A stretch of 64,000 bases of DNA, taken from positions 4,905,522 through 4,969,521 of the forward strand of contig CM039211.1 of NCBI GenBank assembly GCA_008360975.2, given 5' to 3'. The notes under the pieces were generated by a model. The model searched no databases, had not been told where the DNA came from, and saw only the letters and a list, made by a program, of their open reading frames with translations. Below, piece after piece: positions 49,075 to 63,057 of this stretch (positions within the stretch are counted from its first letter, which is position 1; each line of letters opens with the position of its first letter). The stretch comes from Lichenostomus cassidix. Lineage: Eukaryota; Chordata; Aves; Passeriformes; Meliphagidae. A program made the position numbers and the translations under genes.

Positions 49075-49336
49075 TGTCCCTCCCGCTGTCCCCGAGCTGT
49101 CCCCGAGCTGTCCATTCACTCCCGCTGTCCCTCCCGCTGTCCCTCCCGCTGTCCCTCCCGCTGTCCCCGAGCTGTCCCCGAGCTGTCCCCGAGCTGTCCA
49201 TTCACTCCCGCTGTCCCCGAGCTGTCCCCGAGCTGTCCCCGAGCTGTCCCCGAGCTGTCCATTCACTCCCGCTGTCCCTCCCGCTGTCCCTCCCGCTGTC
49301 CCCGAGCTGTCCCCGAGCTGTCCCTCCCGCTGTCCC
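49075..49336. repeat. Composite minisatellite upstream of EXOSC5
   Basis: Interleaved 11-bp (CTGTCCCCGAG), 12-bp (CTGTCCCTCCCG) and 17-bp (CTGTCCATTCACTCCCG) units, arranged in a higher-order pattern where the 17-bp unit recurs three times. It ends about 130 bp before the EXOSC5 start codon. The Ser/Pro/Cys-rich frames over it are not genes. Confidence 0.9.
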
Positions 49337-49465
49337 CTCACGCCGCTCCCGCCCCGCCCACCCGCACGGTATCGCGAGAGCGAGGACAAGTGGCGAGCCC
49401 GGCGCTGATTGGCCGGCCCGGGACCCGGAAGCGGAAGCGGCGAGGAGTGTCGGGAGGCGGCGGCG

Positions 49466-49540
49466 ATGGCGGTGGAGGCGATGGCGGTGGAGGCGATGGC
49501 GGTGGAGGCGATGGCGGTGGAGGCGATGGCGGTGGAGGCG
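49466..49540 (+). repeat. 15-bp x5 tandem repeat at EXOSC5 start
   Basis: Five perfect copies of ATGGCGGTGGAGGCG beginning at 49466, 49481, 49496, 49511 and 49526, in frame with EXOSC5. Confidence 0.98.
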
Positions 49541-51166
49541 GCGGGGCCGGGCGGGCAGTGCCGCTTGCGGCCCTTCTCCTGCGAGCTGGGGCTGCTCTCG
49601 CGGCCCGACGGCTCGGCCACCTTCCTGCAGGGTCTGTGGGGCTCCTCCTCCCGGGCATCCCCTTCCCGTCCGTTCCTGCAGGGTGGCTCCCGCTCCCCGG
49701 TGTCCGCTCCGCACCGTGACCGCTCCTCTCTGTGTGCAGGTGACACCTCGGTGCTGGCGGGGCTCTACGGCCCTGCGGAGGCCAAAGTCAGCAAGGAGCT
49801 GCCGGACCGGGCGGCGCTGGAGGTGCTGCTGCGCCCCAAGGTGGGGCTGCCAGGTGAGGACCCTCCGTCCTGCCCTTGTCCCCAGACAGGTTCTTTCCCT
49901 CAGAGTGAAGGAGTCGAGGTATTTGCTTTATTTAGAGCTCTTCATGTACATTTTGCTGGGTGAGAAATCCACAACTCCAGCATGAGAACCATCAAACCCC
50001 TCCGCTATTTACACATTTTAGCAAACAAGGGTGCTAATGTTCATTTGCTACAAACAACAGAGTTCTCTCGTTAATGAGCGTTCCCCCTTCTGTTGGTTAA
50101 TGACGCTAATCAGTGCCATGCTCAGCGTGCCCTGGTTTGGCCAGGGGCTCTCTTGGCTCAGCTGCCAGGAGCTGCCCTGCTGCCAGCAGTGTTCCCCACC
50201 AGAGCTGATCAGCACAGCTGCCGAGCTCTCTTTAGGAGCTTCTCCCTTGTCTTGGCAGTTCTGCCCGATGTCCTTGTCCATAAGCTCTGTGCAGCTAACC
50301 CTCCACAAGGCACTTCCAGCAGCCAGGAGTTTGTCTGTGCGGTGCCTGCTCACCGCTGGGAGCTCGGGGGCTGCTCAGGCTCGGGGATTAAATCTCCTTT
50401 CGCTGGCCTGAAAGCGCACAGAGCTCAAACAGCAGAGGGGGCTGCTGGGGAGCTGTGACGCGGTGTGTCGTGCAGGTGTGCTGGAGCGCAGCCGGGAGCA
50501 GCTGCTGCGGCAGACGTGTGAGGCTGTGGTTCTGGGGGTGCTGCACCCGCGCACGGCCATCACCCTGGTGCTGCAGGTGCTCAGCGACGCCGGCTCCGTA
50601 TCCTTCCCTCCGGGGGGCAGGGGGGCTCGCAGGGCGGGCTGGGGAAGGGCGGCTCGGAGCTGTTGGTGCTGTGTGTCCCTTGACACCCCAGCTGCTGTCC
50701 TGCTGCCTGAACGCCGCCTGCATGGCGCTGCTGGACGCGGGGCTGCCCCTCGCCGCCCTCTTCTGCGGCGTCACCTGCGCCCTGCAGCCCGACGGCACCA
50801 TCCTGCTGGACCCCACAGCCCGGCAGGAGCAGGTGAGCCCCGGGGGGAGCCCCGCTCTCTGCGTGCCCCCCGAGCCCCGCTGACCCCTGTCCCCGCAGGA
50901 GGCGCGCGCCATCCTCACCTTCGCCATCGGCAGCAGCGGCAGGAAGGTGCTGATGGCCACCACCAAGGGCAGCTGCTCTGTGGACGAGGTGAGGCAATCT
51001 CGGGGGGTCTGGGGGTGCGGGATTGCCTCCCGGGGGGACCCTCACACCCACCATTCACCCCTGGTCCCTGCAGATGCAGCAGTGCCTGGCCGCAGCTCAG
51101 CGTGCTGCTGACACCATCTTCCAGTTCTACCGTGACTCCGTGTGCCGCCGCTACTCCAAGTCCTGA
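49466..51166 (+). CDS. EXOSC5: EXOSC5 (RRP46), exosome core subunit
   Basis: RNase PH-fold subunit of the nine-subunit RNA exosome ring, which degrades and processes RNA in nucleus and cytoplasm; in animals the ring is structural and not catalytic (family knowledge). Exons: 49466-49631, 49740-49853, 50476-50597, 50692-50832, 50899-50988, 51074-51166; 241 aa against about 235 in mammals. Blocks: [80 protein letters not shown], and a C-terminal [12 protein letters not shown]. The first 25 residues are five copies of MAVEA, encoded by a 15-bp tandem repeat, so any of five ATGs could start translation. A possible variant poly(A) signal (AGTAAA) lies at 51,216. Confidence 0.96.
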
Positions 51167-55233: not shown

Positions 55234-55285
55234 TGTTGCCCGAACCGAGGAAACACAAAACAACCGAAGTTATTTTATGCGGTGC

Positions 55286-55291
55286 TTTATT
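55286..55291 (-). terminator. LTR poly(A) signal
   Basis: AATAAA on the minus strand in the presumed R region. Confidence 0.8.
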
Positions 55292-55358
55292 GAGGGCCCT
55301 GGGGACCTGAGGACTAATGTCCAAAGTCAGAGCCCCAAACCTGCTACAAATCACTGAG

Positions 55359-55366
55359 TATATATA
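55359..55366 (-). promoter_or_regulatory. LTR TATA box
   Basis: TATATATA on the minus strand, 70 nt before the LTR poly(A) signal. Confidence 0.7.
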
Positions 55367-55723
55367 TGTTTTCTTTCCAAATTGCTTCATCTTAACTAAT
55401 TTGATTTCTAGACACATCTACCTGATTTATGATTACATTGTGACTTTGTTTTTCGTTAACTGAACATTCTTTATCATCATTAATCTACTACACCCTATTA
55501 GATAAGTCACACACTCCACTTAGCATATTACTTAAATAAACAAACTGTTCTATAGCTACATTCCTTAGACAAGTCTTTCTCCCCTCATCAGTATGCTCTA
55601 TTGATCCTTTTGATCGCTACTGGCAACTTCGCTACACAACAGTGTTTACACTCAGGCCTACTGATCCCTCCAAGCCTTAGCATGACTACTACTAAAGTTT
55701 TTATTCATAGTTTTGCAACAAGT

Positions 55724-55773: not shown

Positions 55774-57033
55774 TCAAAGTCTTTCTTCTCTATTTGCTGG
55801 AGGAGGTGTGGAAGACGTTGCATTCCTGGTCATTGCATTGATCAGCCTTCGGGTATGTAGGCGCTCCCTTCTAATGGTTCCTAAAATACATTTATAAACT
55901 CCAAAAATAATTAGAATCAAAATCAAAAACATTATCGCATACTGAATCACCGATGATATCCATCCAGACACCTGGAGTCCTAAAGAGCTAAACACTTCTC
56001 TAATCCAATTATGTTCTGCTTCCCTTTCGAGATCTTTTGTTTTGTCTTCTATTTGTTTTAATTGTGAAATGTCCTTTTCCACATCAATAGTTACATTTGG
56101 GATATGGATGCAACAATGATCAATTCTCTGGCTCAAATATCCACACACTCCATGTTCCTTCAGTAAGAGCATGTCAAGAGCCATTCTATTTTGTAATGTC
56201 ATTCTTGTGGTAGCCTGTAACTGAATATTGAAATCTTTAAATCCTTTCTTAGTGGCTGCTGCCAATCTTTCAGTCTGCCCCATTAGTTTGTAGAGCATAT
56301 CCCTGTTCCGATATGAAGCTACAGGTGCAAACAAGGATTCCAAAGCCCACCCGAATTTAACTCCACTGGTTGGCTCATGCCATTCGTTTTCATCATCCAA
56401 GTCTCGTTTAGTCCTAGCTGATTGTCGAGTCAAATTAGACTGTTTCCAAAACGGACATAAGGTCGGAATTTCTAAAGTAATTTGTGTGACAGGCCCATCT
56501 ATTGGCATATGGGTGGTCCATTTTCCATGCCCCATAACCCAAACTAGGTTTCCTGGACTTCTGATAGTAGTAGATTTACAACTGATGTTTCTCTTCCCAT
56601 TTTTATCTCCTTGAATTTGGTCTGTAATTGTGTGGTTGTATCCTCGACATTCACATCCCCATTTTAGCAAGACTCTTACTGGTACGAGCCCTATTTTATC
56701 TTTTGGTGTGTCACATGTGATTACTTGGGTACAATTCCAAATGTCTTTTTGGTCCCTCTTCTCCCGTCTGGTAGTCTGGAGGTTCATTACCTCAGTGTAA
56801 GTCTGGTTTTTACTTCCTGTCCATTGTATGCACCAATTAACTTGTCCTAAGTAGCTATATGTTTCTAAAAGGCTTGGTCCCCAAATTGTTCCCCATTCGT
56901 CTTCTAAAGACTGGGTCTGGGTAACATTTTGACAGACTTCTTCCTCTCTAATCTTTTGTTCCTTGAGAGTTACTTTGTTACACGGTTCTGAAACAGGCCC
57001 CTGAAACAACACACTTATTACCTCTTGATGTTG
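55774..57033 (-). pseudogene. env: env, distal part: end of surface subunit plus transmembrane subunit
   Basis: Frame open from 57,033 to the stop at 55,774, about 419 residues, with no ATG near its start, so it is not an independent gene. It is +1 relative to the upstream env frame. It carries several N-glycosylation sites and a furin-like cleavage site (ARTKR, followed by DLDD). A leucine-rich heptad region follows, with LQNRMALDMLLLKEHG in the position of the immunosuppressive-like segment, and then VCGYLSQRIDHCC. A membrane anchor (IMFLILILIIFGVY) and a short cytoplasmic tail end it. The Cys loop has nine residues between C and CC, where gamma-type transmembrane subunits usually have six. 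No strongly hydrophobic fusion peptide follows the cleavage site directly. Confidence 0.9.
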
Positions 57034-58354
57034 TCAGCCATGCATAATATCCTGGCATCTGCCTGCATTGGTGTTCAGTAACCTTCCGGACCAACATACA
57101 ACCCTCTTTCCAGTCATAGTACTCATTAGGAACCAATCTACAGCTCCAAGTTACATTTACATATGCCTCAGGCAAATCAGTGACGGGAACTATTCCCCAT
57201 GGAATTGGTTCTCCCGCTGCTCGAGGCAGAGGTAAACAAGCAGTGATTTTAGAAACATTCTGCATTTCTCCAAAGTCTCGAATTAGACCTACAATTAAGT
57301 TTTCTTGTTCTGGGTTATGGTGAAAAACCCAGGTTTTATTTCCAATTTCAACATCTCTAATTCTTCTTTTATTTATTCGTGCCCTAGTAAGGGATACCAA
57401 AGTCACAGCGTGTGTCCACCATGCATCTTGGGCAATCCAACACCAATATGTCCCTTCATCCTCTGGTTGAACATCCTGTATCACTAAAGTTAACATGCCT
57501 CCTGATCGCTTCTCTAATTGGTATTTCCCCCCTTCCTGGACATTTCCTTTCTTAAACCACCATCCGAACTCAGAGAAAACAATTCCACGCTCTGGTTGGC
57601 AAACTAAAACTACAGAAGCACCACGGACCGCCTGGTAAATTCCATGGGTAGGTCTTAACCCATCCATTAGATGACTTTTTCCTTGTACTTCTCTCTTCCC
57701 GTACCCCATCATAGAACCACAACTTATCACACAGAGATATAATCCCTCATTTTTCCCTACACGTGCCTGAGTATCATTTAACCATCCAATTCCACTATCG
57801 CTTCCTGCCTGCAGGTCACTCTTTCCTTCCGGCCTTTCCCACATTATCTGTCTAGCTAATTTCCACCAAGTAACCGTGAACATGCTGCTACATTCATGTT
57901 GGGCTGTGAATGAGCAATTTATTTTTGAGGGTGGACCATCCCACATGTCAACTAATGCTTGGTAAGGTGAGACTTTTATTGCCGAGTTGCTTTGCCATGT
58001 CATAACCCCTAGTGCGATTCGTTTATAATCAAAACTCCACCTAATTTTTACCAGACATGTATATATCCCAGCACTTTCCATGCTAACGTTGGTAAGCTGT
58101 AATGTGGTATTGCCTCTTTGTGTGTCCCTATCCCAAAATGTACTATTGATAACATTAGTGAGTGTTTGCTCTTTCCTCCAATATGTACTTATCTCATCGA
58201 CTCCAGCTCCCTGGTCATCAGTGATTTCACAAGTCAAGTTTACAGTCATTCCTTCCATTGCTCCGATTACAGGATCTGAAACAGTGACAAGTACATGTTC
58301 ATCAACGGGTAATATTTTTAGCATAACCAGAAATACAGCAATTACAATTTTCAT
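56978..58354 (-). pseudogene. env: env, proximal part: surface subunit with three Ig-like domains
   Basis: Starts at ATG 58354, whose last two bases overlap the pol stop (ATGA), and ends at a stop at 56978; 458 residues. A hydrophobic signal segment (about residues 1-16) is followed by three Ig V-like domains. Domain 1: C42, W59, C100 (SAGIYTC). Domain 2: C147, W163/W164, C208 (GLYLC). Domain 3: C252, W265/W266, C305 (VQPEDEGTYWC). The D-x-G-x-Y-x-C pattern of domain 3 is diagnostic of V-set folds and recalls pIgR/CD300-type receptors. A Cys-rich part with N-glycosylation sites comes next, then the frame is lost. The distal part lies in another frame, so this copy appears broken unless the shift is an assembly error. 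Signal peptide, glycosylation sites and position argue that this is genuine surface env. Confidence 0.88.
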
Positions 58355-61300
58355 TTTGCTCGTAAAATCAATCGCGTGGGGGACACGACTTGGGATTCCC
58401 ACTGAGTTGGCATCTTCTTGACTCGCGTGTAATGTATCCAGGAGTCGATTCCGGCCACTTTGATTGCTGTGAATGTTGTTAATATCACCTGATACGGGCC
58501 GTCCCATGATTCTCTCAGTGGGTCTGTGAACCAGTTCTTCACGTATACTTGGTCTCCTGGTTGAACATCATGCACAGGATTTTCCAGTGGAAGAGGTCTG
58601 TTCCACTGCAGGGTTCCACGCAAGGCACTGAGAACTCTATGCAGAGAAACAACATAATTATATACTGCCTGATCCCCTACCACATGCGGGTCTCCTTTTA
58701 AAATAGTTGCCTGGTAAGGTTTTCCATATAGTATCTCATAGGGGCTCACGCCTAACCTTTCCCTTGGCTTAATTCTAATTCGGAGGAGAGCAAGTGGCAA
58801 AGCCTGAGGCCATTGTATTTTGGCTTCTTGACAGATTTTCTTAATTTGGCCCTTTAAAGTTTGATTCATTCTTTCTACTTGCCCACTAGATTGCGGTCTC
58901 CAAGGAGTATGGAGATTCCAAGCAATATCTAACATCCGTGCTACATCCTGCACAATATTAGCAATGAAGTGAGGACCCCTATCTGATGACAACCCCAAAG
59001 GTACTCCAAATCTGGGTATTATCTCTTTCAAGAGAGTTTTCACTACTTCTTTTGCCTGATTAGTCCTACATGGAAAGGCCTCTGGCCACCCTGAAAAAGT
59101 ACACACATACACCAGGATATATTTATACCCTTGTGCTTTGGGTAATTCTGAAAAATCCACCTGCCAATAATCTCCCGGTTCTGGTCCTACTTGTAATTTT
59201 CCCATCTGAATCTGTTTCCTGACAATAGGATTATTCTTTAAACAGACTGGGCACATTGCATTCACCCGTTTTGCCAACGTTAACATCTGATTGGAAATTA
59301 TTTCATTCTTCAAAAATTTTACCAATGCTTCTGCTCCCCAATGACTTTTGTTATGTTCAGCTATGAGGATGGCTTTCATTATCTGTATGGGAACAACTAC
59401 TTGTCCTGTATTGGTTGTGTACCATCCTGTTGCTCCTTTCCGAGCTTTCAATAACATGGCTGGTTTCTCATCATCCTGTGAATACTTTGGAGCTTGTTGC
59501 ATATAAGGTGTAACAGGGTTTACCTTAGTTGGTATGAGAGCCATCTGAGTCCATACTTGACGAGCTGCCTGCTTTGCAGTTACATCTGCTAAATGATTAC
59601 CTTGGTAGATTTTTCCTTCTTCATTCCGATGTCCCTGGACATGCATAACGGCCACTCGCTCTGGTCGGTGTACAGCATCCAACAATGCTAACACTTCTGT
59701 GCGATGTTTTATTACAGCCCCTTGGGAATTAAGAAGTCCTCTTTCTTTCCATAGTGCTCCGTGAACATGCACCACACCAAAGGCATACTTGGAATCAGTC
59801 CAAATATTTACCGTTTTCCCAGTGCTCAATATCAAGGCTCGAGTGAGTCCAATGATCTCAGCCTTTTGGGCTGACGTACCTGGTGGCAGGGCTTGTGCCT
59901 CCACAACTCGAGTAACTGTAACCACTGAATATCCCACATACCTGGTACCGTTTTCCATAAAACTGGAACCATCGGTAAATAATTCCCAGTCTGGAGCATC
60001 CAGGGGTTCATCCTTCAAATCCGGTCGGCTCGAATAAACTTGTTCAATCACTTCCCCACAGTCATGGGAGAGCTCATGTTCTTCCATCTCACTGTGGAGG
60101 AACTCTGCTGGATTAATATGATTAGTCGTTTGGAGTTCTATGTCATCTTGTTCTCTTAGAATAGCTTGATACTGCAGCATTCTACTGGAAGATATCCAAT
60201 GACCCCCCTTTTGCTCCAAGACAGCTAGTACCATGTGGGGAACATACACCGTCATTCTTTTTCCCATGGTAAGTTTCCTGGCTTCCTGAATGAGAAGTAC
60301 CGTAGACGCAACGGCCCGCAAGCATGACGGCCAACCGGTACTTACAGTGTCCAGTTGTTTGGAGAAATATCCCACAGGCCTCTTCCAGGATCCCAACTTC
60401 TGGGTTAGAACTCCCAATGCTAGTTTCTGCCTTTCATTCACATATAATTGAAAGTCTTTGTTTAAATCTGGCAACCCCAAGGCCGGGGCTTCTTTTAATG
60501 CTTGTTTCAAATCCTGGAACGCCTTCTCCCTGTTTGGATTCCATTTCAATTGGGATTCTTTTAGAGCCTCATATAGGGGTTTTGCTATCAGGCCGAAATT
60601 CGGAATCCATAGCCTGCACCATCCAACCATTCCCAGAAAGGATCTTAACTCCTGGTGATTTCTAGGGAGTGGAATGGAGCATATAGCTTCAATTCTGTTA
60701 ACCCCCAAACTTCTGAGGCCTTGTGTTAGCTCACATCCTAGGTACAGGACACTTTCTCTGACCAGTTGTACTTTTTCCTTGGATACCTTGTATCCTGCTT
60801 GCCCCAACATATTCAATAATGCAACAGTTAATCGGAGGCATACCTTCTTGTCTTCTGTGGCCAAAAGAATATCATCTACATACTGCAATACTACATAAGA
60901 ATATGGAGATTCTCTCACCTGAGTCATTTTCCATTCTTCTAATTCCTTTGCCAATTGATTACCAAAGATGGTAGGGCTGTTTTTGAATCCTTGAGGCAGT
61001 CTGGTCCAGGTGAGCTGTTTCTTCCTTCCTGTCATTGGTTCTTCCCATTCAAAGGCAAAATACTTCATGCTCTCTATTGCCAGTGGGATGCAGAAGAAGG
61101 CATCCTTTAAATCAATCACAGTGAACCATTTAAATCGTTCCGATACAGATGTTAACAATGTATAAGGGTTGGCAACCACCGGGTGAATGTCTTTAACTAT
61201 CTCGTTTATAGCCCTTAAATCTTGAACTAATCTATACTTACCATTTGGTTTCTTCACCGGGAATATAGGAGTATTATACTCTGATTCACATTCCTTTAAT

Positions 61301-63057
61301 AAACCTTGCACTGTAAACTGTGCTATCAGCGGAGCTACTCCCTGCCGAGCCTCTGCTTTAATGGGATACTGTTTTATCCTAACCGGTTTAGCTCCTTCTT
61401 TTAGCTCAACTACCACCGGCTGGGCAACCTTTGATTTTCCCGGAGTTCCCGCCTCCCAAACCCAGGGTACCACTGCATGTTCAATCTCTGTTGGGATCGG
61501 TGCCGGGTCCATTTCCTTTATTGCAAATATTTTCCCGATTTCTTCATCCGGAATTTCCAATTTAACTCGACCCTGTTCAAATATAATTTTAGCATTTAAT
61601 AAAGACAGCAAATCCCGTCCAAACAGAGGCTGAGGGCAGTTTGGCATATACAAAAACTGATGATCCAGTTCCTTTCCTCCGAATTTTAAATTAAGGGGTT
61701 GTAGAAAAGGCCTTTCCTCCAATTGTCCTGTAGCTCCTATTACCTGTATAGTTGTGTCACTTATGGGTCCCAACCGTTTATTTAAAACTGAGTGAGTAGC
61801 CCCTGTATCAACCATAAATTCCTGCTCCTGTCCGCCTATTTCTATTATCACCTTCAGATCCCGGTCTAGTCTGCTTTGATCCCTACAGTTTCCTAACATC
61901 ATTGCCTGTGCTTGTGTCTGGGCGCCATCTACCGGCGGTACGGGGAAACCTCCCATCAACCCTACATTACTCATCCCAATCCCGTTTCTTATCGGACATT
62001 CATTCCGCCAGTGTCCGAATTGACGACAAAATGCACACTGATTAGGACCCAACTGTTCCTGTCTACCCTGGCTCATCCCTGCAACTAAAAATCCTCCTCT
62101 CCCCCGAGCGAATCCTCCCCTTCCCTGTCCAATTCCCCTTCCTCCCCTTCCCCGGCCCCTTACCCCCCCCCGAACCGCAGACTGCTGAATTACTGCAAGA
62201 ATTCCGGCTTGTTGTCGTTTAGCCGTTTCCTTTTCTCTATTATTATAAACTTTCCAAGCTACCTCCAACAGCTTATCTAAGCGTCGTGTGTGTTCCCCTT
62301 CTAATTTCTGCAACTTTTTCCTAATATCCTCTTGTGACTGTCCCATAAACAACAATGCCAATTGTAACTGACCTTCTTCCTTCTCCACATCCAAACTAGT
62401 GAAACGCCGTGCTGCCTCTTTAAGTCTCTCTAAAAATGCTGAAGGGGATTCATTCTTTTCTTGTTTTATTGAGTATAGCTTAGACCAATTTAGGGTTTTA
62501 GGCATCCCAGTCCGGACGCCTTCAATCAATAATTCCTGATACCTTTTTAACCTCTGTAAACCTTCTAACTCATTTGGATCCCGCTCTGGATCATCCCCAG
62601 GGACCAATTGATCTATTGTTTCCCCCATTATCAATCGTAACCGGAGTTGTTCCCTAGCTCGTTCTTTGGTTGCTCGTAAGACCATCTCTTTTTCTGTAGA
62701 ATCCATTAATGTATCTAATAACACTTGTAAATCATTCCAATCCGGATTCTGAGTTTTAATTATCATCTTCACCACCCTGGCCACCCGTTCGGGGTCCTCC
62801 CGATAACTCCCAGCTGATTGTTTCCAAATCACCAAATCCCCTGGAGAAAAAGGTACTTTAATAATAACTTTCTCACCACGGGGGCCCATGGCTTCCCTTA
62901 AGGGGGCTATCATTCGGGGTTCCTCTTGATTCCGCCTTCCCTGTCTAGTCCGTGCCGCTATGGGGTTCTTTGTATGCTTCGGGAGCTTGGGGAAGGAGTT
63001 TGGGGACGGAGGGTGACTGAGGTATGACTTACTCCAAGTCCTTCCGGGGATTGTATA
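58351..63057 (-). CDS. gag-pol: gag (capsid, nucleocapsid) fused in frame to pol
   Basis: One frame open from 63,057 to the stop at 58,351; the first ATG in it is at 62,913, giving 1,520 residues. Order from that ATG: gamma-like capsid (VPFSPGDLVIWK near residue 20; a major-homology-like segment with ESPSAFLERLKEA), Arg/Gly-rich linker, one CCHC knuckle (CAFCRQFGHWRNEC, about 292), protease (VDTGATHS, about 366), reverse transcriptase (LPQGFKNSP; YVDD, about 676), RNase H (LFTDGSS, about 976), integrase zinc domain (H-x3-H...CPVC, about 1187) and integrase D, D, E residues in WQVDFSE, SSDRGPHF and SGQVERMNQ (about 1251, 1309, 1344). There is no stop between gag and pol, although gammaretroviruses normally use stop-codon readthrough there. 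All catalytic motifs look intact. Confidence 0.95.
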   Translation of the reverse strand, partial: YTIPGRTWSKSYLSHPPSPNSFPKLPKHTKNPIAARTRQGRRNQEEPRMIAPLREAMGPRGEKVIIKVPFSPGDLVIWKQSAGSYREDPERVARVVKMIIKTQNPDWNDLQVLLDTLMDSTEKEMVLRATKERAREQLRLRLIMGETIDQLVPGDDPERDPNELEGLQRLKRYQELLIEGVRTGMPKTLNWSKLYSIKQEKNESPSAFLERLKEAARRFTSLDVEKEEGQLQLALLFMGQSQEDIRKKLQKLEGEHTRRLDKLLEVAWKVYNNREKETAKRQQAGILAVIQQSAVRGGVRGRGRGGRGIGQGRGGFARGRGGFLVAGMSQGRQEQLGPNQCAFCRQFGHWRNECPIRNGIGMSNVGLMGGFPVPPVDGAQTQAQAMMLGNCRDQSRLDRDLKVIIEIGGQEQEFMVDTGATHSVLNKRLGPISDTTIQVIGATGQLEERPFLQPLNLKFGGKELDHQFLYMPNCPQPLFGRDLLSLLNAKIIFEQGRVKLEIPDEEIGKIFAIKEMDPAPIPTEIEHAVVPWVWEAGTPGKSKVAQPVVVELKEGAKPVRIKQYPIKAEARQGVAPLIAQFTVQGLLKECESEYNTPIFPVKKPNGKYRLVQDLRAINEIVKDIHPVVANPYTLLTSVSERFKWFTVIDLKDAFFCIPLAIESMKYFAFEWEEPMTGRKKQLTWTRLPQGFKNSPTIFGNQLAKELEEWKMTQVRESPYSYVVLQYVDDILLATEDKKVCLRLTVALLNMLGQAGYKVSKEKVQLVRESVLYLGCELTQGLRSLGVNRIEAICSIPLPRNHQELRSFLGMVGWCRLWIPNFGLIAKPLYEALKESQLKWNPNREKAFQDLKQALKEAPALGLPDLNKDFQLYVNERQKLALGVLTQKLGSWKRPVGYFSKQLDTVSTGWPSCLRAVASTVLLIQEARKLTMGKRMTVYVPHMVLAVLEQKGGHWISSSRMLQYQAILREQDDIELQTTNHINPAEFLHSEMEEHELSHDCGEVIEQVYSSRPDLKDEPLDAPDWELFTDGSSFMENGTRYVGYSVVTVTRVVEAQALPPGTSAQKAEIIGLTRALILSTGKTVNIWTDSKYAFGVVHVHGALWKERGLLNSQGAVIKHRTEVLALLDAVHRPERVAVMHVQGHRNEEGKIYQGNHLADVTAKQAARQVWTQMALIPTKVNPVTPYMQQAPKYSQDDEKPAMLLKARKGATGWYTTNTGQVVVPIQIMKAILIAEHNKSHWGAEALVKFLKNEIISNQMLTLAKRVNAMCPVCLKNNPIVRKQIQMGKLQVGPEPGDYWQVDFSELPKAQGYKYILVYVCTFSGWPEAFPCRTNQAKEVVKTLLKEIIPRFGVPLGLSSDRGPHFIANIVQDVARMLDIAWNLHTPWRPQSSGQVERMNQTLKGQIKKICQEAKIQWPQALPLALLRIRIKPRERLGVSPYEILYGKPYQATILKGDPHVVGDQAVYNYVVSLHRVLSALRGTLQWNRPLPLENPVHDVQPGDQVYVKNWFTDPLRESWDGPYQVILTTFTAIKVAGIDSWIHYTRVKKMPTQWESQVVSPTRLILRAK

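What the first reader, a model, noticed from the sequence alone, without database searches (positions are those of the whole stretch)
56978..58354. Retroviral surface envelope built from three immunoglobulin V-like domains
The N-terminal ~320 residues of this env read as three tandem Ig-like domains with Cys-Trp-Cys cores. The last has the textbook D-x-G-x-Y-x-C strand motif (EDEGTYWC). The frame begins at the env ATG, directly overlaps the pol stop, has a signal segment and N-glycosylation sites, and is followed by a furin site and transmembrane subunit. Known gamma-type surface subunits are not normally described with tandem V-set domains. The inference is capture of a host Ig-superfamily ectodomain (pIgR/CD300-like) by an avian retrovirus, which could change receptor choice or mimic host immune receptors.
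Basis: partly seen in the sequence, partly recalled or inferred. Interest (0 to 1): 0.88.

Follow-up and report, generated by a model that had tools for sequence, protein, structure and literature searches.

The report
Retroviral envelope wearing three immunoglobulin domains
Young retroviruses in a bird genome carry an envelope protein whose outer end is three antibody-like domains; related modules turn up in other songbirds and one domain resembles a bird poxvirus protein, so this may be an old module that viruses acquired and now use to dock onto cells.

Summary
Window 58354-56978 (-) encodes a signal peptide, three tandem Ig-like domains and the start of a gamma-type SU. D1 and D3 pass Pfam Ig cut-offs; D2 does not. 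The provirus has 487-bp LTRs with 3 mismatches and a 4-bp target duplication. The window copy is frame-broken between SU and TM, but at least 13 of 44 copies fetched from this genome keep one open 859-codon Ig-Env frame, and variants shared among copies suggest purifying selection on the Ig part. Sister ERVs and two outgroup envs lack the module, so it was probably gained.

Related modules (30-54% identical) occur in Serinus canaria, Zosterops borbonicus and two unnamed contigs, one of which runs straight into SU. No close host donor was found in this genome, so a recent pIgR/CD300 capture is not supported. D2's best viral fold match is the avipoxvirus Ig protein SWPV1-183 (38% identity). Best reading: an old module forming the outer, receptor-contacting part of SU. 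Function is inferred.

The parts
55234..55720 (-). 3' LTR of the provirus (its 5' LTR lies just outside the window, at what would be 64028-64514)
   Evidence: 487 bp, 3 mismatches, no gaps between the two LTRs (printed before that script stopped on an error); TGTTGC...GCAACA ends and CCTG on both flanks
58351..62913 (-). gag (capsid onward)-pro-pol open frame, gamma-type
   Evidence: Pfam Gag_p30 3.5e-35, RVP, RVT_1, RNase_H, rve, MLVIN_C 1.1e-15
56978..58354 (-). env frame of the window copy: signal peptide, three Ig domains, N-terminal part of the SU body; ends at a frame break
58301..58354 (-). signal peptide, about residues 1-18 (cleavage position not predicted by a tool)
   Evidence: hydrophobic N-terminus read from the sequence
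57995..58300 (-). Ig domain D1 (residues 19-120), Cys42/Cys100, nearest solved relatives CD276 and PD-L1
   Evidence: Pfam ig 1.6e-10; PDB CD276 4.3e-11 (summed over its repeated domains, no single stretch passes), PD-L1 2.6e-06
57668..57994 (-). Ig-like domain D2 (residues 121-229), Cys147/Cys208 plus Cys155 and Cys212; the most distinctive domain
   Evidence: PDB sequence search gave one unrelated match at 1.7; fold match to avipoxvirus SWPV1-183, 38% identity
57389..57667 (-). Ig domain D3 (residues 230-322), Cys252/Cys305, EDEGTYWC
   Evidence: Pfam ig 3.7e-08, V-set 4.0e-08; PDB titin 3.1e-09 (summed over repeats), pIgR 9.1e-08
56978..57388 (-). start of the retroviral SU body (residue 323 on), homologous to the SU of Ig-less sister ERVs
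   Evidence: 42 of 120 aligned residues identical to sister L010, measured on copy L003
55774..57012 (-). rest of env in another frame: SU C-terminal part, furin-type site (56421-56401), TM with LQNRMALD...C(x9)CC and membrane anchor
   Evidence: Pfam TLV_coat 1.2e-05; filovirus GP2, ERV-S71, syncytin-1 and MLV-type TM matches; positions

Best explanation
This is a recently active gamma-type endogenous retrovirus of a bird whose Env has an N-terminal module of three Ig domains between the signal peptide and the ordinary SU body. The module is an old, diversified part of a songbird retrovirus lineage, gained before the divergent Ig-Env lineages split, and was kept under purifying selection while the virus replicated. 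Most likely mechanism (inferred): the Ig module is the outermost part of the Env and makes the first contact with a host cell-surface protein, doing the attachment job of a receptor-binding domain, while the SU body and TM carry out fusion. Shown: architecture, multiplicity, recent insertion, absence in sister and outgroup envs, recurrence of the module in other songbird sequences. Supported statistically: purifying selection. Inferred: age of the gain, surface exposure, receptor contact, direction of transfer.
For: Pfam and PDB matches. In sister envs the signal peptide joins directly to the stretch homologous to residue ~323 on; two outgroup envs have no Ig match between pol end and SU. At least 13 of 44 copies with one open 859-codon frame. 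In the Ig part of the 29 of 44 copies alignable without gaps over SU codons 1-450, shared variants are 12 non-synonymous/14 synonymous and singletons 39/14 (Fisher p = 0.024; shared class against a mutation-only expectation p 0.0004-0.009, singletons p 0.27-0.75). Module relatives: P0004, P0005 (Serinus canaria), P0007, P0008 (Zosterops borbonicus), P0003, P0006 (unnamed contigs). P0006 runs from the pol-overlap leader through D1-D2 into retroviral SU; P0008 is 79/86 identical to it over D1 and carries the same leader; P0005 has a similar leader end and signal peptide. Gamma-type RBDs lie in the N-terminal domain of SU, and a review expects novel folds there (PMC9967133, passages).
Against: No functional data. 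D2 is Ig-like by pattern, a weak model and fold matches only. Env membership of the outside relatives is direct for P0006 alone; P0003-P0005, P0007 and P0008 end before SU. P0006 lacks D3, and one copy here (L064) has lost D2+D3 in frame with 670 codons open, so the triplet is not strictly kept. Eight of 44 copies share a frame break near residue 380, so a sublineage spread without an intact Env. The selection test is small, and copies are not independent.
Confidence: 0.6

Rival explanations
1. The Ig module is mainly an immune decoy: D1 imitates a B7/PD-L1-like ligand or another checkpoint protein on virions and infected cells, and attachment is done by the SU body.
For: D1's nearest solved relatives are CD276 and PD-L1, with a shared DYKRI stretch; a host exon identified as PD-L1 (4.3e-29) matches D1 at 43% over 41 aa; shearwaterpox and canarypox viruses encode many Ig-like proteins (PMC5390406 table, passages).
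Against: The PD-L1 likeness is confined to about 40 residues around the last strands of the V domain, and the genome match is weak (E 0.94); D2 and D3 have no such link; no ligand was tested.
Confidence: 0.2
2. Recent capture of a host pIgR/CD300-like ectodomain.
For: D3 matches pIgR in PDB at 9.1e-08; a host Ig gene (nectin3) was captured by a crocodilian ERV (PMC4299795, passages).
Against: No close host gene in this genome for any of the three domains; module homologues in other songbird sequences are only 30-54% identical.
Confidence: 0.07
3. The module was exchanged with an avipoxvirus: either an avipoxvirus took it from an Ig-Env retrovirus, or the retrovirus took it from a poxvirus. This concerns origin and does not exclude the best explanation.
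For: SWPV1-183 is the only BFVD match at E <= 0.001 for the D2 model (4.7e-05, 38% identity over 111 columns, TMq 0.73); the next is 7.7e-03 at 20%. It is 332 aa, about the length of signal peptide plus module, and 54% identical to CNPV081. Retrovirus proviruses integrate into avipoxvirus genomes (PMC7563266, passages).
Against: The D2 model is low confidence (pLDDT 55). SWPV1-183 could not be read here, so match beyond D2, tree and direction are untested; a shared host ancestor gene would look the same. The profile search of the protein database listed no poxvirus protein (it only scores candidates sharing short exact words). PMC7563266 says integration had been seen in fowlpox, pigeonpox and turkeypox viruses but never before in canarypox viruses.
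Confidence: 0.4
4. The Ig module is ancestral to these gamma-type Envs and was lost in sister families.
For: In-frame losses do occur (L064; D3 missing in P0006).
Against: Sister family and two deeper, decayed outgroups lack it, needing several losses.
Confidence: 0.1
5. Host exon insertion or misassembly at this one locus.
For: None found.
Against: 44 copies on 10 contigs, LTRs, target duplication, relatives elsewhere.
Confidence: 0.01

Closest known systems
Gamma-type retroviral Env (MLV, syncytin kind)
   Same: Signal peptide, SU, furin-type site, TM with LQNR..LD...C..CC stretch, anchor; TLV_coat match; gamma-type gag and pol
   Different: Three Ig domains precede the SU body; no CXXC in either env frame; C(x9)CC instead of CX6CC in TM
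Ig-less sister ERV family in the same genome (36 distant matches; L009-L011 with long env frames)
   Same: pol 58-66% identical in four tblastn alignments; SU body 42/120, next SU part 72/192 and TM 110/204 aligned residues identical
   Different: Signal peptide joins directly to the SU body; no Ig module
Crocodilian CrocERV31 with captured nectin3 (PMC4299795, passages)
   Same: An ERV encoding a protein with three Ig-like domains under purifying selection
   Different: There nectin3 replaces env and is ~76% identical to the nectin3 of an alligator; here the Ig module is fused in frame to a retained Env and no close donor was found
Avipoxvirus Ig-like proteins SWPV1-183 / CNPV081
   Same: D2 fold match with 38% identity; total length 332-333 aa
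   Different: Listed as separate poxvirus genes, not part of a fusion protein; match beyond D2 not tested
PD-L1 / CD276 (B7 family) and pIgR
   Same: Ig fold; stretches of about 40-50 residues alike
   Different: Different number and order of domains; low identity; no D2 counterpart found

Membership tests
Gamma-type retrovirus | Gag p30, RT, MLV-type integrase C-terminus | tested here: met
Gamma-type Env | SU plus TM with furin-type site and TLV_coat-type TM | tested here: met
   one frame in at least 13 of 44 copies
Gamma-type Env | CX6CC in TM and CXXC in SU (CX6CC named in PMC9967133; the role of CXXC partly recalled) | tested here: not met
   TM reads C(x9)CC; no C..C in either env frame. 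Hence called gamma-like
IgSF domain | Pfam Ig model above cut-off with Cys pair, D1 and D3 | tested here: met
IgSF domain | same for D2 | tested here: inconclusive
   sub-threshold Pfam, pattern in register, pLDDT 55 model, fold matches mostly to Ig domains
Recently captured host gene (pIgR/CD300-like) | a host gene with the same domains at high identity | tested here: not met
   this genome only, six frames, candidate limit; the D1 search did reach host PD-L1 at 43%
Avipoxvirus CNPV081-like Ig protein | full-length homology and tree placement | not testable with these tools
   only the Foldseek match of D2; no relative reached in viral contigs
Receptor-binding domain | binds a host cell-surface protein | not testable with these tools
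   none

The most novel reading that the evidence does not exclude
A three-domain Ig ectodomain circulates among bird viruses themselves: it is the native outer domain of a songbird retrovirus lineage and also a stand-alone avipoxvirus protein, moved between a retrovirus and a large DNA virus, and it defines a kind of Env that docks through tandem Ig domains.
Probability: 0.35. Interest if true: 0.92.

Novelty: new variant of a known kind. Interest (0 to 1): 0.82.

Why it matters
Gamma-type Envs normally meet their receptor through an N-terminal receptor-binding domain of their own fold. Here a tandem Ig module sits in front of a retained SU and TM, has diversified, and stayed under apparent selection in a virus young enough to have LTRs 99.4% identical. 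It gives a concrete system to ask whether Ig modules can be receptor-binding or immune-modulating parts of a retrovirus, and the avipoxvirus resemblance points to possible gene flow between retroviruses and poxviruses in birds.

Tried and rejected

Literature: searches (4 papers listed; 13 listed; 402 hits, 15 listed) looked for Env with Ig domains; I read passages of PMC4299795, PMC9967133 and PMC10072453 (the last concerns CD4 domains, not Env). Searches timed out. That no Env of this kind is in print is therefore said only for those three searches of open-licence papers. PMC6523648 and PMC8310711 (passages) had no mention of immunoglobulin.

Rows left out: of 44 Ig-Env copies, 15 did not align without gaps over SU codons 1-450 and were left out of the variant count; 4 nonsense changes in the Ig part were counted apart. 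Four of 44 copies lacked the exact start motif and were not scored for frame length (one of them, L033, has a 948-residue open frame); L050 holds 500 N. Of 36 distant matches, 20 were fetched. One search scored 101 of 966 candidates, and two of its lower-identity rows were fetched as outgroups. L051 and L052 are near-duplicates.

Full report
What is there. The 459-codon frame at 58354-56978 on the minus strand overlaps the pol end by four bases and encodes a signal peptide, three tandem Ig-like domains and the beginning of a retroviral SU. Pfam finds Ig models at 9.3e-18 (ig), 1.4e-17 (Ig_3) and 1.8e-14 (V-set) for the whole ORF. Taken apart, D1 (58300-57995) and D3 (57667-57389) pass the cut-offs, while D2 (57994-57668) does not. 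D2 shares the G, Cys and GxYxC positions with D1 and D3 and gives a weak model with Ig-like strands (pLDDT 55).

Surroundings. Upstream lies a gamma-type gag-pro-pol frame, 62913-58351. The provirus is bounded by LTRs of 487 bp that differ at 3 sites; the 5' LTR is just outside the window. Both flanks carry the same four bases, CCTG, a target duplication. Three differences in 487 bp mean an insertion of the order of a million years old, by recalled songbird mutation rates and with a wide error. The window copy is defective: env is frame-broken between SU and TM, so the furin-type site and TM (57012-55774) lie in another frame, and gag reads, by eye, in two frames. The env has no CXXC in either frame and its TM reads C(x9)CC.

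Copies. Searching the assembly (1.10 Gb) gave 93 matches to the SU, 57 rows of close copies, some split, and 36 distant ones. I fetched 44 Ig-Env copies: 33 on contig C32, the rest on nine others. Of 44, 40 could be scored for frame length; 13 have one open 859-codon frame through Ig, SU and TM, and six stop at codon 387. By tblastn, eight of 44 share a frame break near residue 380 (L054-L059, L061, L062). L064 lacks D2+D3 in frame and stays open for 670 codons. In the 29 copies alignable without gaps over SU codons 1-450, mean pairwise difference is 1.19%, at most 2.5%. Variants shared by copies in the Ig part are 12 non-synonymous and 14 synonymous, singletons 39 and 14; Fisher p = 0.024, and the shared class falls below a mutation-only expectation (p 0.0004 to 0.009 over transition biases 1 to 8) while singletons do not. 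Copies are related, so this is supporting, not decisive.

Gain rather than loss. The 36 distant matches cover only residues from about 296 on, at 36-52% identity. Of 20 fetched, eight show the env start in a frame of 130 residues or more, and those eight run from signal peptide straight into the SU body (L009-L015, L023); the other 12 are broken there or do not show the start. Against sister L010 the Ig-Env copy L003 is 42/120 identical in the SU body and 110/204 in TM. Two lower-identity outgroups (36-37%), both decayed, have no Ig match at E <= 0.1 and only 355 and 137 bases between the pol and SU matches. A single gain in the Ig lineage is the simplest reading.

Not a local or recent host capture. 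Each domain was searched against the bird's own genome. D1: 51 matches, three of them outside the ERV copies and weak (0.44, 0.94, 4.92); the second is host PD-L1 (4.3e-29 to solved PD-L1), so the search could reach a 43% relative over 41 residues. D3: 77 matches, 43 of them ERV copies, best other one 0.0017 at 27%. D2: 49 matches, 43 of them ERV copies, best other one 0.28, with stops and no Ig frame. In PDB, D1 resembles CD276 and PD-L1, D3 titin and pIgR, D2 nothing; the CD276 and titin values are summed over repeated domains. These are superfamily-level resemblances. The host-genome search has a candidate limit, so a very diverged donor could be missed.

Other songbirds. D2 alone found P0003, 55% identical. 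Residues 1-330 found P0004 of Serinus canaria, 45% over 75% (one match among 803 candidates). A three-row profile added P0005 (canary), P0006 (unnamed contig) and P0007, P0008 (Zosterops borbonicus) (six proteins among 2461 candidates). P0006 carries the pol-overlap leader and signal peptide and runs through D1-D2 into retroviral SU ('EQENLVVGLIRDFG...ITACLPLPQAAGEPIPWGI'), lacking D3; P0008 carries the same leader and is 79/86 identical to P0006; P0005 has a similar leader end. The others end before SU, so their being env is inferred. Module identity of P0001 to these ranges from 60/197 to 91/170 (P0007 has an unrelated tail). So the architecture recurs, and is old relative to this young amplification.

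A poxvirus relative. D2's only viral fold match at E <= 0.001 is SWPV1-183 of Shearwaterpox virus: 4.7e-05, TMq 0.73, 38% identity over 111 columns; the next match is 20% identical. A table in PMC5390406 (passages read) lists SWPV1-183 as 332 aa and 54% identical to CNPV081, an Ig-like domain protein of canarypox virus. The length is about that of signal peptide plus module. Against it: the model is weak, the pox sequence could not be read here, IMG/VR scans reached no relative, and the profile search did not list it. Retrovirus proviruses in avipoxvirus genomes are documented (PMC7563266, passages), though that paper says none had been seen in canarypox viruses before; exchange is plausible, direction unknown.

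How it probably works. The module takes the place at the SU N-terminus where gamma-type Envs carry the receptor-binding domain (PMC9967133, passages). I infer that it makes the first contact with a host surface protein, with SU body and TM performing fusion. A PD-L1-like decoy role is a live rival because of D1. Neither is shown.

Known relatives. The nearest published case found is CrocERV31, in which nectin3, with three Ig-like domains, replaces env (PMC4299795, passages). Here the Ig module is fused to a retained Env and no close donor was found. Three answered searches of open-licence papers (capped listings) showed no Env of this kind.

Noticed in passing
G000 contig C32 (24.1 Mb): 33 of 44 Ig-Env copies sit on one contig that is 2.2% of the assembly, as expected if it is the W chromosome, a refuge for ERVs in birds (PMC8310711, passages); W identity not tested.
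   Followed up: partly
L054-L059, L061, L062 (env near residue 380): Eight copies share the same env frame break, so a sublineage spread without an intact Env, by retrotransposition or help in trans.
   Followed up: partly
L064: One copy lost D2 and D3 in frame and keeps an open 670-codon env; P0006 lacks D3.
   Followed up: partly
window 62913-58351: In the window copy capsid to integrase is a single open frame with no stop at the gag-pol border, where gammaretroviruses have a read-through stop (recalled); other copies not checked.
   Followed up: no
window 49085-49365 and 49438-49555: Two GC-rich arrays of short direct repeats (GCTGTCCCCGA-type units, and a 15-base GGCGGTGGAGGCGAT-type unit).
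   Followed up: no
G000:C1:93026606-93026890: A host V-type Ig exon, the best non-ERV match to D1 (36% over residues 4-86; 27 of 95); gene not identified.
   Followed up: partly
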